Below are positions 52,369-58,805 of a DNA stretch of 64,000 nt, piece after piece. The stretch is taken from assembly GCA_963812945.1 (NCBI GenBank), contig CAWEXD010000008.1:3348001-3412000 (forward strand), written 5' to 3'. Position 1 is the stretch's first letter. Every line of letters starts with the position of its first letter. This DNA comes from DASRDR01 sp963812945 [NCBI: uncultured Candidatus Rokubacteria bacterium]. GTDB taxonomy: Bacteria; Methylomirabilota; Methylomirabilia; Rokubacteriales. The notes beneath the pieces are model-generated. The model saw nothing but the letters and a program-made list of their open reading frames with translations, was not told where the DNA came from and did not search any database. The translations under genes were made by a program, and so were the position numbers.

Positions 52369-52421
52369 CCGCGTACCGGCGTCGCGACGCCGTCGCGACC
52401 AACCCGAAGAGGAGGACCGGC

Positions 52422-53054
52422 ATGGCGCTTCGACTGGGCGACCTCGCACCGGACTTCACGGCGGAGACCACGCAGGGGCCGATCCGGTTTCACGAGTGGC
52501 TCGGCGAGCGCTGGGGCGTCCTGTTCTCGCACCCGAGGGACTTCACCCCCGTCTGCACCACCGAGCTCGGAGAGGCCGCGCGTCTCAAGCGGGAGTTCGA
52601 GCGGCGCAACGTCCGGATCATCGGGCTCAGCGTCGATCCGCTCGACGCCCATCACCGGTGGGCCGAGGACATCCGGGAAACCCAGGGCCAGGACCTCAAC
52701 TTCCCGGTGATCGCCGACGGGAAGCGCGCGGTCTCGAGTCTCTACGACATGCTCCATCCGAACGCGAGCGACACCTTCACCGTCCGCTCCATGTTCGTCA
52801 TCGACCCGAAGAAGCGGGTGCGGCTGACGATCACGTATCCGGCCAGCACGGGCCGCAACTTCGACGAGGTCCTGCGCGTCATCGACTCGCTCCAGCTCAC
52901 CGACAGGCACGGAGTGGCGACGCCGGTGAACTGGCGGCCGGGCGAGAACGTGATCATCGTCCCCTCGATGTCGGACGAGGACGCCCGGCGCCGGTTCCCG
53001 GGCGGCTTCAAGACCCTCAAGCCGTACCTGCGCGTCGTCGCGCAGCCGATGTGA
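52422..53054 (+). CDS. 1-Cys peroxiredoxin (Prx6 type)
   Basis: The ATG at 52422 has GAGGAGG 6 nt upstream and gives 210 aa. The peroxidatic Cys45 sits in DFTPVCTTELG. The C-terminal extension with ATPVNWRPGENVIIVPSMSD and FPGGFKTLKPYLRVV is typical of Prx6-class enzymes, and no resolving Cys is visible. Such enzymes reduce H2O2, organic peroxides or possibly hydropersulfides with an external thiol. It is the first gene behind the sigma-54 promoter and is followed 82 bp later by a paralogue. Confidence 0.95.
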   Translation: MALRLGDLAPDFTAETTQGPIRFHEWLGERWGVLFSHPRDFTPVCTTELGEAARLKREFERRNVRIIGLSVDPLDAHHRWAEDIRETQGQDLNFPVIADGKRAVSSLYDMLHPNASDTFTVRSMFVIDPKKRVRLTITYPASTGRNFDEVLRVIDSLQLTDRHGVATPVNWRPGENVIIVPSMSDEDARRRFPGGFKTLKPYLRVVAQPM

Positions 53055-53136
53055 GGAGCCGGGAGGCCGGGCCCCGGCGTCGCGGCAGAGTCGTGGCTTC
53101 ACGTCCTGACAACCATTCACCAGCCGGAGGCGATTC

Positions 53137-53796
53137 ATGGCACTGAGAATCAACAGCGAGGCGCCCAACTTCACCGCCGAGACCACCCAGGGCCCGATCG
53201 ATTTCCACCAGTGGATCGGCGACGGCTGGGCGATCCTCTTCTCGCACCCGAAGGACTTCACGCCGGTCTGCACGACCGAGCTCGGCTACATGGCCGGACT
53301 TCGGCCCCAGTTCGAGAAGCGCCACTGCAAGATCATCGGGCTCAGCGTCGACCCCGTCGCCGACCACCGGCGATGGGCCAAGGACATCGAGGAGACCCAG
53401 GGCCACGCCGTGACCTACCCGATGATCGGCGACCCCGAGCTCCACGTGGCCAAGGCCTACGACATGCTGCCCGAGGCGGCCGGAACCACGGCCCAGGGCC
53501 GCACCGCCGCCGACAACGCGACGGTCCGGTCGGTGTTCGTCATCGGGCCGGACAAGAAGGTCAAGGCGATGCTCACCTATCCGATGAGCACGGGCCGCAA
53601 CTTCGACGAGGTGCTGCGGCTGCTCGACTCCTGCCAGCTGACCGCGAAGCACAAGGTGGCGACGCCGGTCAACTGGAAGCAGGGCGACGACGTGATCATC
53701 GTGCCCGCGGTCTCCGACGCCGAGGCCAAGGAGCGGTACCCGGGGGGCTGGAAGTCGCCGAAGCCCTACATCCGCGTCGTCCCACAACCGAAGTGA
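53137..53796 (+). CDS. 1-Cys peroxiredoxin (Prx6 type), tandem paralogue
   Basis: This 219-aa protein is a tandem duplicate of the previous gene. It shares MALR.....P.FTAETTQGPI, the peroxidatic Cys45 in DFTPVCTTELG, GLSVDP, STGRNFDEVLR and ATPVNW. It has extra Cys residues (KRHCKIIG, LDSCQL), which could resolve the sulfenic acid, and an insertion (EAAGTTAQGRTAADN) in the loop before the TVRSVFVI strand. GGAGG lies upstream of the ATG. Both would serve peroxide or persulfide defence in the same operon. Confidence 0.95.
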   Translation: MALRINSEAPNFTAETTQGPIDFHQWIGDGWAILFSHPKDFTPVCTTELGYMAGLRPQFEKRHCKIIGLSVDPVADHRRWAKDIEETQGHAVTYPMIGDPELHVAKAYDMLPEAAGTTAQGRTAADNATVRSVFVIGPDKKVKAMLTYPMSTGRNFDEVLRLLDSCQLTAKHKVATPVNWKQGDDVIIVPAVSDAEAKERYPGGWKSPKPYIRVVPQPK

Positions 53797-53813
53797 GAAA
53801 GGGGGAGCCGGCC

Positions 53814-55082
53814 ATGGAGCACATCTCGAGACGATCGCTCCTGGGCGCCGCGGGGGCGGGGCTCGGCGCGCTCGTGGCCGGCTCTCTGACCGGCTGCGCG
53901 GCGACCGTGAAGGGCGACCTCGCGCCCCGCTCGGGCCGGCGGGTCGTGGTGGTCGGCGGCGGCTGGGGTGGCGCGACCGCCGCGAAGTACGTCCGCCTCG
54001 GGGACCCGACGATCGAGGTCATCCTGCTGGAACCGAGCCGGCAGTTCGTGTCCTGCCCGTTCTCGAACCTCGTCCTGAGCGGCGTCGAGTCGATCGACGC
54101 CCTGACGTTCGGCTACGACCGGCTCCGGGCTCATGGAGTCCGGATCCGGCACGAAGCCGCCACGGCCATCGAGCCCGACCGGAAGCGCGTCCGGATCGGG
54201 GAGGGATACCTCGAGTACGACCGGCTGATTGTCGCTCCGGGCATCGACTTCCTGTGGGATCAGGTGGACGGGATCGCGGGCGCCGAGGACCGGGTGCTCC
54301 ACGCCTGGAAGGCGGGGCCCCAGACCGTCGAGCTCGCCCGCCAGCTCCAGGCCATGCCCGACGGCGGGGTCGCCCTCATGACCGTGCCCCCGATGGCCTA
54401 CCGTTGCCCGCCCGGACCGTACGAGCGGGCGTGCCAGATCGCGTGGTTCCTCAAGACACGGAAGCCACGGGCCAAGCTGGTCGTTCTCGACGGCAACAAC
54501 GACGTGGTGTCCAAGCCCGGCCTCTTCAAGGCGGCCTTCCGCGGCTATCCGAACCTCGAATACCGGCCGACCAGCAAGCTGGAGAAGGTCGACCTCGGGA
54601 CACGGGAGGTCACGCCGACGGTCGGCGACCGCGTCCGGTACGACGTGCTCAACCTGATCCCGCCCCAGCGGGCGGGCGCCATCGCCGTCCAGGCGGACCT
54701 GGTGAACGCCGACCGCCGCTGGTGCGAGGTCGACCACGTGACCTACGAGTCGCTGAAGCACCCGGGGATCCACGTCATCGGCGACGCGACGACGGGGCTG
54801 CCCGTCCCGAAGTCGGGCAACATCGCGAACGCCATGGGGAAGATCTGCGCCACCGCCGTCGTCCACCTGCTCGGCGGGAAGGAGCCGCCGGTCCTCGCGC
54901 CAGGCAACACTTGCTACAGCTGGGTCAGCGACACGGAGGCGATCGCCGTGGTGAACGCGTACCGGATCGACAACGGCAAGGTGGTCCAGATCGAGCAGAA
55001 GCTGACGCCGCGCCCGAGCGCGGCCGTCGCGCAGAACTCGATCGGCTGGCGCGCCAGCATCTGGGCCGACGTGCTGGGCTGA
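53814..55082 (+). CDS. fccB: Flavocytochrome c sulfide dehydrogenase flavoprotein subunit
   Basis: This 422-aa flavoprotein starts at ATG 53814 (GGGGGAG upstream) with a Tat leader (SRRSLLGAAGAGLGALVAG). The FAD motif is VVVVGGGWGGATAAKYVRLG. Three Cys match the functional ones of Allochromatium FccB: Cys81 (VSCPFSN; the 8-alpha-S-cysteinyl-FAD position, Cys42 there), Cys198 (YRCPPGPYERA; Cys161) and Cys367 (NTCYSWVS; Cys337), the last two forming the sulfide-oxidising disulfide. LIPPQRAG and HVIGDATTGLPVPKSG are also conserved. It would oxidise sulfide to polysulfide in the periplasm and pass electrons to the cytochrome c encoded next. It lies 17 bp after the second peroxiredoxin. Confidence 0.93.
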   Translation: MEHISRRSLLGAAGAGLGALVAGSLTGCAATVKGDLAPRSGRRVVVVGGGWGGATAAKYVRLGDPTIEVILLEPSRQFVSCPFSNLVLSGVESIDALTFGYDRLRAHGVRIRHEAATAIEPDRKRVRIGEGYLEYDRLIVAPGIDFLWDQVDGIAGAEDRVLHAWKAGPQTVELARQLQAMPDGGVALMTVPPMAYRCPPGPYERACQIAWFLKTRKPRAKLVVLDGNNDVVSKPGLFKAAFRGYPNLEYRPTSKLEKVDLGTREVTPTVGDRVRYDVLNLIPPQRAGAIAVQADLVNADRRWCEVDHVTYESLKHPGIHVIGDATTGLPVPKSGNIANAMGKICATAVVHLLGGKEPPVLAPGNTCYSWVSDTEAIAVVNAYRIDNGKVVQIEQKLTPRPSAAVAQNSIGWRASIWADVLG

Positions 55083-55112
55083 CGGGCGGAAGCGCTCGAG
55101 GAGGTGACGCCG

Positions 55113-55709
55113 ATGCGACGGATTCTCCTGATGATGGTCGTGGGCCTGGGTCTCCTGGGCGCCGATGGGATGGCGGGACAGACGATGGGAGGCTCGCCGG
55201 CGGCGCCAGCGGCGATGGTCTGCAGCGCCTGTCACGGCCAGGCGGGCCAGAGCCCGTCCGACACCATGCCCATCCTGGCCGGCATGTCGCCGGCCTACTT
55301 CAAGAAGGCGATCGCCGACTACGCGGCGGGACGTCGGCCGTCCCCGGAGATGGAGCCCTACGCAAAGATGACGACCCACTTCGGGGTGGACGGCATCGCG
55401 GCGTACTTCGCCGCGCAGCCGCGCCGGGCCACGCCGGTCAAGGCCGACGCCGCCGCCGCGGGGCGGGGCAAGGCGGCCGCCGCCCAGTGCGCGGAGTGTC
55501 ATGGCGCTCAGGGCCGGGGGGACCCGGCGAAGCTCGGCCCCGCCCTGGCCGGCCAGCCACCGGGATACCTGAAGAACCAGATGCTCCTCTTCAAGCACGA
55601 CCAGCGGAGTCCCGGGGACCCCGCGCTGAAGGCTCAGAAGGCGCTCATGCAGACGATCCCGGATGACACGCTCGCCGACCTCGCGGCATACTATTCGAGC
55701 GTCCGGTAG
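55113..55709 (+). CDS. fccA: Dihaem cytochrome c (c4/FccA-like)
   Basis: I chose ATG 55113 (GAGGAGG upstream) over the GTG at 55104. The 198-aa product has a signal peptide (RRILLMMVVGLGLLGADGMA) and two haem c motifs, C37-S-A-C-H41 and C126-A-E-C-H130, each in a cytochrome c4-type half. Possible axial Met ligands are in ILAGMSPAY and the LMQTIP segment. It stands directly after fccB (30 bp), so it is the likely electron acceptor of the flavoprotein, as FccA is in known flavocytochromes c. The gene name rests on position and haem count. Confidence 0.88.
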   Translation: MRRILLMMVVGLGLLGADGMAGQTMGGSPAAPAAMVCSACHGQAGQSPSDTMPILAGMSPAYFKKAIADYAAGRRPSPEMEPYAKMTTHFGVDGIAAYFAAQPRRATPVKADAAAAGRGKAAAAQCAECHGAQGRGDPAKLGPALAGQPPGYLKNQMLLFKHDQRSPGDPALKAQKALMQTIPDDTLADLAAYYSSVR

Positions 55710-55730
55710 ACGGTCCGGCGGGCCGGTGAG

Positions 55731-56090
55731 ATGAAGGTCCTGATCAAGAGCGCCTGGGGGTCCGACGATCCGACGAAGGCCGCCTTCCCGTTCCTGCACG
55801 GCAACGCCTTCGCCGAGGCCGGGCACGAGGTGCAGATCTTCCTGCTCGGGGAAGCCGTCTCCCTGATGCGCACGCCGGTGGCGTCCGCGGTGGTGCCTGT
55901 GGGGTGGCCCCCGCTGGCCGAGATCCTGAGCCGGACCTGCTCGCTGAAGATCCCGATTCACGTCTGAACCGCGTGCTCCAGGGCCCGTGGGGTCCTCGAC
56001 ACGGATCTCGCCGGGAAGAACGCGACCTTCGCGATCCCGCCGACCCTCGTCGCCCTGACCGAGTGGTCCGACAGGATCCTGAGTGAGTGA
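55731..56090 (+). CDS. DsrE-family protein with in-frame UGA, candidate selenoprotein
   Basis: The frame starts MKVLIKSAWGSDDPTKAAFP and reads as a typical small DsrE/DsrF-like protein. TGA at 55965-55967 interrupts it after residue 78 (KIPIHV), but the same frame then continues TACSRARGVLDTDLAGKN to ALTEWSDRILSE and TGA at 56088, giving 119 residues, the family's usual length. In relatives the sequence after the I/V strand is C-x2-C-x-x-ARG; here the first Cys is UGA, the second is Cys, a U-x2-C pattern common in selenoproteins. The next gene's GTG (56083) overlaps the end of the read-through frame, as expected if it is translated. DsrE-like selenoproteins are a known family. A nonsense mutation or base-call error is the alternative. 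Confidence 0.65.
55965..56003 (+). promoter_or_regulatory. Candidate bacterial SECIS element
   Basis: Directly after the UGA, 55980-55986 (AGGGCCC) pairs with 55990-55996 (GGGTCCT; one G-U pair) around a GUG loop whose first G is 20 nt past the UGA. A lower stem (55972-55975 with 56000-56003) extends it across a 4x3 internal loop. Position, small loop and loop-start GU fit bacterial SECIS rules. Confidence 0.55.
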
Positions 56091-57386
56091 CGGCGGCGCC
56101 GCGCCCGGTGCGGCCCCGACGCTCGTCGACGCCCGGGACGCCGCGCACGCGGCTCCGGCCGCCCGGGACGCGCCGCGCCGGAACGTCCTGCTCCTCGCCC
56201 TGTGTCAGGCGGCGTTCATGAGCTCGGTGTCGCTGGTGGCGACCGTCGGGAGCCTGGCCGGGCATGCGCTCGCCAGCGACAAGGCGCTGGCCACGCTCCC
56301 GGCAACCGCGGTGGTCGTCGGCACCGCCCTCGGCACGATCCCGGCCTCGCTCCTCATGCGGCGGGCCGGCCGCCGGCTCGGGTTCATCGCGGGGACCGGG
56401 TTCGCCATCGCCGGGGGCCTCGTCGCGGCGGCGGCGATCGGGATGGCGAGCTTCTGGCTCCTGGCCCTCGGCAGCGCCCTCGTCGGCACGTCCTCGGCGT
56501 TCGGGCAGCTGTACCGCTTCGCAGCGGCCGAGGCCGTCCCCTCGGCGGCGCGGAGCCGGGCCATCTCCCTCGTGCTGGCCGGCGGCCTGCTGGCGAGCTT
56601 CGTCGGGCCGCAGCTGGCGCGCCTGACGTCCGACCTCCTCGCGACGAGGTTCGTCGCGTCCTTCCTCGCCGTGCCGGTGCTCGCCCTTGTCAGCATCCCC
56701 CTCCTGCTCGGGCTTCGGCTCCCGGCGGTGGTCTCGGACCATGCAGCGGGGCCGACGCGCCCTCTCCGGGCGATCGTGCGGCAGCCGACCTTCCTCGCGG
56801 CGGTCGTCAGCCAGATGGCCGGGTACGGAGCGATGAATCTGCTCATGACGGGCACGCCACTCGCGATGACCGCGCACCACGGACACGCACTGGGGGACGC
56901 GGTGTTCGTGATCCAGTGGCACATGGTGGGAATGTTCCTCCCGGGTTTCTTCACCGGGACGCTGATCCAGCGGATCGGCGAGCGGGCAACGATCCTGCTC
57001 GGCATCGCGCTGAACGGCGCGAGCCTCGCCGTCGCCTTCGCGGGCGTGGGGGTCTGGCACTTCTGGCTGGCCTTGGTCCTCCTCGGCGTGGGCTGGAACC
57101 TCATGTTCGTCGGCGGGTCCACCCTGGTGACGCGGACGTACGCCAGCGCGGAGCGCGCGAAGGCCCAGGCGGCGAACGACTTCCTCATCTGGGCGACGGT
57201 GGCGGCGACGTCGCTCTCCTCGGGACAGCTCCTGCACCGCCACGGCTGGCACGCCGTCGTCACGACCACCCTGCCGCTCCTCGGGCTGGCCGCAGCCGCG
57301 CTGCTGGCGGGCTCCGGGGTATCATGGCCCAGGATGTTCACCGGACGAGGCGCGGTCTCGCATCCCGACCGCTCCGGAGGACCGCG

Positions 57387-57390
<4 letters not shown>
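56083..57390 (+). CDS. Major facilitator superfamily transporter
   Basis: This 435-aa integral membrane protein has about 12 hydrophobic helices and the MFS loop motif in LMRRAGRRLGFIAGTGFAI between helices 2 and 3. Its N-terminal 30 residues are an Ala/Pro-rich cytoplasmic tail. The GTG start overlaps the end of the DsrE read-through frame by 8 bp and its stop overlaps the start of the next gene (ATGA), so translation is coupled within the sulfur operon. Its cargo is unknown; export of a sulfur compound or import of a substrate such as thiosulfate are both possible. Confidence 0.88.

Positions 57391-58805
<1,415 letters not shown>

What the first reader, a model, noticed from the sequence alone, without database searches (positions are those of the whole stretch)
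55731..56090. DsrE-like gene with in-frame UGA at a CxxC cysteine: candidate selenoprotein
Seen: TGA at 55965 stands where DsrE relatives have the first Cys of CxxC; the second Cys is kept; the frame stays open for 40 more family-like codons to the normal end; the next gene overlaps that end by 8 bp; a 7-bp hairpin with a GUG loop places its G 20 nt after the UGA. Known: DsrE-like proteins are an established selenoprotein family, and U-x2-C is a common redox motif. Inferred: UGA encodes Sec here and the product handles persulfides with the neighbouring FccB and CstB-like enzymes.
Basis: partly seen in the sequence, partly recalled or inferred. Interest (0 to 1): 0.92.

Follow-up and report, generated by a model that had tools for sequence, protein, structure and literature searches.

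The report
DsrE-like selenoprotein gene, Rokubacteria-like host
A small bacterial sulfur-handling gene carries an in-frame UGA exactly where many relatives carry cysteine, followed by the RNA hairpin expected for inserting selenocysteine, so it is almost certainly a real selenoprotein gene of an already known kind and not a broken gene.

Summary
A DsrE-like frame starts at ATG 55731, meets TGA at 55965-55967 and stays open to the stop at 56088-56090. The TGA is the first position of a C-x-x-C site. Of 80 relatives found with the upstream piece alone, 72 could be read there: 54 Cys, 18 TGA, no TAA or TAG. In the phylum of the nearest relatives, 48 of 48 loci aligned over the site have TGA; five of them repeat earlier loci. 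A hairpin follows, with a 3-nt GUG loop 19 nt after the TGA, within the published bacterial SECIS limits. It is kept by paired changes across 61 UGA genes and not kept in the Cys genes. The nearest genome has SelB and tRNA-Sec on one contig. I read it as a UxxC selenoprotein. DsrE-like UxxC selenoproteins have been in print since 2005, so this is a new member of a known kind. Neighbours (FccB/FccA-like, MBL-rhodanese) suggest sulfane-sulfur handling, which is inferred. In passing: 19 of the 48 loci carry TGA at both positions (TGA-x-x-TGA), a motif not listed for DsrE-like proteins in the review passages I saw.

The parts
55731..55964 (+). DsrE-like gene, piece before the UGA (78 aa, ATG start)
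   Evidence: 80 relatives found with it alone
55965..55967 (+). in-frame TGA at the first position of the C-x-x-C site
   Evidence: Cys in 54 and TGA in 18 of 72 readable relatives
55968..56087 (+). DsrE-like gene, piece after the UGA (40 aa, holds the second Cys)
   Evidence: dN/dS 0.24 against L101
55977..55999 (+). bSECIS-like hairpin: 7 uninterrupted bp, 9 of 10 pairs in all, GUG loop at 55987-55989, 19 nt between UGA and loop
   Evidence: covariation over 61 genes; published model
56088..56090 (+). stop of the DsrE-like frame; overlaps the start of the next gene
53838..55082 (+). flavocytochrome c sulfide dehydrogenase, flavoprotein subunit (FccB-like)
   Evidence: PF21706 and PF09242; 1fcd_A E 1.5e-98
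55104..55709 (+). diheme cytochrome c (FccA/c4-like)
   Evidence: two CxxCH sites; 3vrd_A E 6.4e-12, 6q2u_A E 3.2e-14
56083..57390 (+). MFS transporter, GTG start inside the last codons of the DsrE-like frame
   Evidence: PF07690 E 3.8e-22
57393..58805 (+). metallo-beta-lactamase plus rhodanese protein (persulfide-handling type, by inference)
   Evidence: PF00753, PF00581; 3tp9_A E 1.4e-87
53137..53796 (+). peroxiredoxin; a second one at 52395-53054
   Evidence: PF00578

Best explanation
The gene is a selenoprotein gene. Inferred step: SelB with Sec-tRNA binds the hairpin 10-32 nt after the UGA, and the ribosome inserts selenocysteine there, giving a small DsrE/DsrF-fold protein with a U-x-x-C motif at the N-terminal end of a helix. 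Shown by sequence: UGA in place of the conserved Cys, a covarying hairpin, purifying selection on both sides of the UGA, and Sec machinery in the nearest relatives. Function is inferred at about 0.45: a cytoplasmic sulfane-sulfur carrier or persulfide reductase that takes sulfur from the sulfide-oxidising neighbours, using the Sec/Cys pair in place of the DsrE persulfide cysteine. The second choice (about 0.35) is a general thiol-disulfide or peroxide-linked oxidoreductase.
For: Codon: 54 Cys, 18 TGA, 0 other stops in 72 readable of 80 loci; 48 of 48 loci aligned over the site in the phylum of G002 have TGA, five of them repeats of earlier loci, whereas their true ends use TAA, TAG and TGA. 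Hairpin: 8.1 of 10 pairs in the 19 UGA genes against 5.2 in the 54 Cys genes. CGT at the loop codon in 18 of 19 against 8 of 54 (Fisher 5e-10). In 61 UGA genes (54 distinct), 58 cells changed on both sides against 27.9 shuffled, 0 of 500 shuffles as high; slid controls are lower on four of five measures. Published bSECIS limits met: 3-9 nt loop with G in the first two places, at least 4 bp, 16-37 nt spacing, MFE at most -7.5; here GUG, 7 bp, 19 nt, -18.3. Selection: dN/dS against L101 is 0.20 before and 0.24 after the UGA. Machinery: SelB in 84 and tRNA-Sec in 79 of 95 genomes of the phylum; nearest genome G138 has both on contig C299. Fold of a Cys relative: YchN, DsrE, TusD. Neighbours.
Against: Single-sequence energies do not separate: window z -0.97 (32 of 200 shuffles as good), L101 +0.25, while the Cys gene L002 has -2.03 by another fold. 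The window's pair number is borderline against a synonymous-codon null (0.057). With the first 19 UGA genes alone covariation was weak: 7 two-sided cells against 4.0, 10 of 500 as high, and slid versions reached or passed the covariation score at +1 to +3. In the 61-gene set the number of pairs with two-sided change (5) is reached by 66 of 500 shuffles and by one slid version. No genome of the host is held; SelA and SelD were not searched. Two of 17 UGA genomes (G001, G006) lack SelB and a tRNA-Sec of 60 bits (G001 has 47.5, just over gathering), as do two of 39 in the phylum (G107, G123). Rfam finds nothing at gathering score. The neighbours are not kept: in the stretches held around 80 relatives only one weak Prx hit (24%, L026) turns up, and none in L151, which weakens the functional reading.
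Confidence: 0.94

Rival explanations
1. A broken gene: the TGA is a nonsense mutation and only a 78-residue stub, or nothing, is made.
For: By table 11 the frame stops at 55965. Damage does exist in some relatives, such as the shifted frame of L106.
Against: TGA at the identical codon in 48 of 48 phylum loci aligned over the site (five repeats) and in 18 of 72 loci titled to several phyla, with no TAA or TAG; piece after the TGA under purifying selection; covarying hairpin; next gene overlaps the distal stop at 56088.
Confidence: 0.02
2. A base-calling or assembly error at a TGC codon.
For: A single-base difference would do it, and relatives have TGC.
Against: Independent genomes share the TGA, and the hairpin goes with the TGA and not with Cys.
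Confidence: 0.01
3. UGA is reassigned in this organism (to Trp, Gly or Cys) and no Sec is involved.
For: None found.
Against: TGA ends the FccB-like gene at 55080 and this gene at 56088, and by the scan no other TGA in the window looks to lie inside a coding frame.
Confidence: 0.01
4. Function: a general redox selenoprotein (thiol-disulfide or peroxide-linked) and not a sulfur carrier.
For: Two peroxiredoxin genes lie upstream; UxxC motifs are typical of thiol redox selenoproteins (PMC1088965, passages); many relatives bear a Tat-like leader, which would place them outside the cytoplasm.
Against: DsrE/TusD fold, FccB-FccA and MBL-rhodanese neighbours.
Confidence: 0.35

Closest known systems
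DsrE-like selenoprotein (PF02635, UxxC) of the Sargasso Sea, GOS and Desulfovibrio vulgaris sets
   Same: DsrE-like family, one UGA at the first position of C-x-x-C, predicted hairpin after the UGA (PMC1088965, PMC1794560, PMC2398784, PMC9312934, PMC13188914, passages)
   Different: Direct sequence comparison with those members was not made. A Rokubacteria-like host and a sulfide-oxidation neighbourhood are not mentioned in the passages I saw.
Cys form of the same subfamily in Acidobacteriota, Verrucomicrobiota, Bacteroidota and Pseudomonadota MAGs and isolates (L002 etc.)
   Same: 59-79% identity before the site apart from L079 (38%); in most, the same 40-residue length after it
   Different: Cys in place of the UGA, hairpin not kept; 49 of 54 have a Tat-like leader by my motif rule, which the window gene lacks
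DsrE of DsrEFH / TusD of TusBCD
   Same: Fold (2hy5_A, 2d1p_A). DsrE-Cys78 carries persulfide (PMC3397948, abstract and passages).
   Different: No DsrF or DsrH neighbour, 16-17% identity, U/C-x-x-C pair
UxxU selenoproteins (Prx-like, NF041115, FmdB-like)
   Same: Double in-frame UGA as in 19 DsrE-like loci found here
   Different: Other protein families (passages); the window gene itself has one UGA

Membership tests
Bacterial selenoprotein | In-frame UGA aligned with a conserved Cys of homologues | tested here: met
   54 Cys and 18 TGA of 72 readable loci
Bacterial selenoprotein | bSECIS: 3-9 nt loop with G in the first two, 4-16 bp stem, 16-37 nt from the UGA, MFE at most -7.5 | tested here: met
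   GUG loop, 7 bp, 19 nt, -18.3 kcal/mol; covariation
Bacterial selenoprotein | SelB and tRNA-Sec in the host | tested here: inconclusive
   Own genome not held. Nearest genome G138 has both; SelB in 84 and tRNA-Sec in 79 of 95 of the phylum.
Bacterial selenoprotein | Selenocysteine in the native protein | not testable with these tools
   Needs native protein
DsrE/DsrF-like family PF02635 | Profile score over Pfam's cut-off | tested here: inconclusive
   Window piece cut at the stop: 13.3 bits against 22.7. Cys relatives: 38 of 38 scanned match at E up to 0.1, best 1.3e-14; L002 48.8 bits.
DsrE/DsrF-like family PF02635 | DsrE/YchN fold | tested here: met
   For the Cys relative L002 only: pLDDT 88.8, 1jx7_A E 7.6e-07, 2hy5_A E 7.2e-06
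DsrEFH / TusBCD complex | dsrF and dsrH (tusC, tusB) next to it | tested here: not met
   Neighbours from 52395 to 58805 are Prx, FccB-like, cytochrome c, MFS and MBL-rhodanese
DsrE2 sulfur carrier (NF047629) | Score over the NCBIfam cut-off | tested here: not met
   Window piece 14.1 bits against 210; L002 14.7 bits; 22 of 38 Cys relatives match only weakly, best E 0.0029

The most novel reading that the evidence does not exclude
In the Methylomirabilota/Rokubacteria a DsrE-like sulfur-carrier family is mainly a selenocysteine family, in two forms: UxxC (as in the window) and a double-UGA UxxU form held by 19 genomes. In the window's host the UxxC form works in a sulfide-oxidation operon, carrying sulfur on selenium between flavocytochrome c sulfide dehydrogenase and a rhodanese-type persulfide enzyme. 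In the wider subfamily the site has switched between Sec and Cys at least twice, probably including a regain of Sec and a return to Cys in Acidobacteriota.
Probability: 0.3. Interest if true: 0.65.

Novelty: new member of a known kind. Interest (0 to 1): 0.5.

Why it matters
By table 11 this gene reads as a 78-residue stub, so its product would be missed. It is one of 62 UGA-bearing DsrE-like genes seen here (the window, 18, and 43 more, repeats taken out). A 2026 review says that aerobic bacteria rarely keep selenoproteins (PMC13188914, passage); whether these hosts are aerobic was not tested. Closely matched Sec and Cys forms, with at least two switches between them, make the family a good place to ask why selenium replaces sulfur, and whether DsrE-type sulfur carriage can run on selenium.

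Tried and rejected
Rejected: broken gene, base error and reassigned code (see rivals). Rfam over the window gave nothing at gathering score. The profile of 38 Cys relatives found no PDB sequence at E up to 1; the fold search did. Conserved gene neighbourhood: not found in the stretches held around 80 relatives, apart from one weak Prx hit in L026, nor in L151. The FccB-like gene was searched in 14 genomes and found at 69-72% in five; in their 4.2-kb stretches L091-L095 the cytochrome is next to it, no DsrE-like piece was hit, and L091-L093 have weak rhodanese-type hits at one edge. Folding energy alone does not separate the window hairpin from shuffles. Sec machinery as a discriminator in the first set is weak: SelB 14 of 17 UGA genomes against 18 of 33 Cys genomes, Fisher 0.067; tRNA-Sec at 60 bits or more, my own cut, 13 of 17 against 14 of 33, Fisher 0.036. 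SelA and SelD were not searched.

Rows dropped: of 80 loci, five end before the site and three (L072, L077, L080) match only elsewhere. Of 58 matches, 55 were looked at: L127 ends early, L150 is weak (it has TGA-x-x-TGC and was left out of the 48), L152-L155 match only other parts or not at all (L153 has TAG as its first stop, aligned to residue 66 only) and were left out; three weak ones (G098:C53, G116:C144, G134:C22) were not fetched. The 48 include five repeats loci (L102, L103, L105, L107, L135), judged by genome and sequence. L106 was left out of A3 for its shifted frame. L069, L076, L078 and L079 were left out of the second tree. A1 holds 38 of the 54 Cys loci; L006, L010, L023, L029, L039, L040, L041, L044, L051, L053, L057, L065, L068, L069, L076 and L079 were left out, some as broken or cut, some only to keep it short. 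One search scored 52 of the 54 Cys genes.

Papers: only passages were seen unless said; section 5 of PMC13188914 was read whole. In PMC12013277 none of the terms was found. PMC7539508 and PMC6054048 were not opened. Searches.

Full report
Observation. The DsrE-like frame starts at ATG 55731, meets TGA at 55965-55967, is open again in the same frame from 55968 to 56087 and stops at TGA 56088-56090. The codons at the site are TGA ACC GCG TGC, so the TGA sits at the first position of a C-x-x-C spacing. I read nothing through; the two pieces were treated apart. A codon-use scan of both strands found four TGAs in the window with coding-like, stop-free flanks of 30 codons on both sides. The other three I read as two ordinary gene ends (55080, 31189) and an antisense frame (17607); this one has scores of 9.6 and 10.5.

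Relatives and the codon. The 78-residue upstream piece alone found 80 loci in GTDB genomes, the most the tool returns. In 72 the site could be read: 35 TGC, 19 TGT, 18 TGA, no TAA and no TAG. The TGA loci are titled Rokuibacteriota, Acidobacteria/Terriglobia/Vicinamibacteria, Deltaproteobacteria, Eremiobacterota and other Proteobacteria; some titles may belong to misbinned contigs. In the phylum of G002 (the genome of L003, Rokuibacteriota), 45 of 95 genomes match the piece. Of 58 matches 55 were looked at; 48 loci align over the site, and 48 of 48 have TGA; five of the 48 repeat loci. Their true ends use TGA, TAG and TAA. Chance stops would not be one codon only.

Hairpin. From column 13, counted from the T of the TGA, the 19 UGA genes of the first set (window included) form on average 8.1 of 10 pairs, the 54 Cys genes 5.2. 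Against synonymous randomisation the UGA genes average 8.1 against 5.9 expected, the Cys genes 5.2 against 5.0; 9 of 19 UGA genes and 0 of 52 Cys genes are at or under 0.05. The exact string GCCCGTGGGGTC is in 13 of 19 and 0 of 54; CGT at the loop codon in 18 of 19 and 8 of 54. Mean energy z against simple shuffles is -0.88 for the UGA and +0.26 for the Cys pieces. Over 61 UGA genes (54 distinct) 82.6% of cells pair and 58 cells are changed on both sides against 27.9 in shuffles, 0 of 500 as high; covariation score 0.237 against 0.117, 0 of 500. The number of pairs with such a change, 5, is not unusual (66 of 500), and one slid version ties it; on the other four measures all slid versions are lower. 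With the first 19 alone it was weaker: 7 cells against 4.0, 10 of 500 as high, and the covariation score of slid versions +1 to +3 was as high. Window: 7 uninterrupted base pairs, GUG loop, 19 nt between UGA and loop, -18.3 kcal/mol, which meets the four limits of the bSECIS model in PMC13188914, section 5. Its energy alone is not unusual (z -0.97), L101 has +0.25, L003 -2.94, and the Cys gene L002 -2.03 by another fold; the window's synonymous null is 0.057.

Selection. Against L101, the nearest relative (86-87% identity), dN/dS is 0.20 before and 0.24 after the UGA; in the wrong frames the pattern is lost. Against ten other UGA relatives the downstream value is 0.13-0.68. The next gene starts at 56083, inside the last codons, which fits translation to 56087.

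Host and machinery. No genome is held for the window. A branched-chain-aminotransferase-like protein of the window (name by eye) has its best match in the phylum in G138 at 76%, the genome that also holds the nearest DsrE-like gene. So the host is most likely a relative of the Rokubacteria/Methylomirabilota (the second name is mine); window GC is 71.9%. In that phylum SelB is over its cut-off in 84 of 95 genomes and tRNA-Sec over gathering in 79 of 95. Ordinary tRNAs can pass that gathering score, as 5 of 14 control genomes did, but the best hits of the 79 are 56 bits or more. G138 has both on contig C299. Of the 39 genomes behind the 48 loci, 37 have at least one of the two; G107 and G123 have neither. 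In the first set 15 of 17 UGA genomes have SelB or a tRNA-Sec of at least 60 bits; G001 and G006 do not.

Family and fold. 38 of 38 Cys relatives scanned match PF02635. The model of one (L002, pLDDT 88.8) matches YchN 1jx7, DsrE of DsrEFH 2hy5 and TusD 2d1p. The Cys that corresponds to the UGA is residue 79 of that alignment, the last residue of a strand (76-79) before a helix (80-86). DsrE-Cys78 of Allochromatium carries persulfide (PMC3397948, abstract and passages); that it is the same site is my inference.

History. In the tree of 78-residue upstream pieces the UGA/Cys state needs three changes, at least two forced by well supported branches: one group of 12 UGA genes with the window (support 96/98) and one mostly acidobacterial group of seven UGA genes that also contains one Cys gene, L070. 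L070 looks like a return to Cys. A wider quick tree of 113 rows, with UGA genes on all deep branches but a weak root, leaves open whether UGA or Cys came first. Both trees have few columns. Tat-like leaders by my own motif rule: 49 of 54 Cys genes, 10 of 19 UGA genes, not the window.

Neighbourhood and function. On the same strand and closely spaced: two peroxiredoxins, FccB-like flavoprotein (1fcd_A, E 1.5e-98), diheme cytochrome c (3vrd_A), this gene, an MFS transporter and an MBL-rhodanese protein (3tp9_A, E 1.4e-87). I read this as a sulfide-oxidation setting. It is not kept near the gene in the relatives, nor is the gene near FccB in L091-L095. I therefore give the sulfur-carrier reading about 0.45.

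Known or new. DsrE-like selenoproteins with UxxC are in print: two sequences in the Sargasso Sea (PMC1088965), D. vulgaris (PMC1794560), DsrE 1 and 2 in GOS (PMC2398784), and both reviews (PMC9312934, PMC13188914). So the window gene is a new member of a known kind. A Methylomirabilota MAG with 63 predicted selenoproteins is cited in PMC13188914; I could not see its list, which may hold such genes. The TGA-x-x-TGA form, 19 of 48 loci in 19 genomes, is not listed for DsrE-like proteins in the passages of those reviews.

Noticed in passing
L119, L121, L126, L128-L130, L136, L138-L149: DsrE-like genes with TGA at both positions of the C-x-x-C site (TGA-x-x-TGA): 19 of 48 loci, 19 genomes. 18 of 19 form 7 or more of the 10 hairpin pairs in the same register (L121 forms 4), though for many the best single fold is another one. 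A UxxU form is not listed for DsrE-like proteins in the review passages seen.
   Followed up: partly
L070:353-706: A Cys gene nested inside the mostly acidobacterial UGA group that still has CGT GGG at the hairpin loop codons: looks like a return from Sec to Cys with a fading SECIS.
   Followed up: partly
L002, L005, L049, L061 and others, just before residue 1: Tat-like leaders (RRxFL type, crude motif rule) on 49 of 54 Cys and 10 of 19 UGA genes: much of the subfamily may be exported folded; the window gene and 8 of the other 11 of its group of 12 lack the leader.
   Followed up: partly
L106 (G101:C128) and L078 upstream piece: Copies with a shifted frame, after the UGA in L106 and near the start in L078: broken copies or assembly errors. 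Not mended.
   Followed up: no
L148 (G075, contig C1 of 2752854 bases): Contig length equals what I recall for Candidatus Methylomirabilis oxyfera; it holds a TGA-x-x-TGA DsrE-like gene. The name is recalled and comes from no call.
   Followed up: no
window 52395-53796: Two peroxiredoxin genes in a row next to the sulfide-oxidation genes.
   Followed up: no
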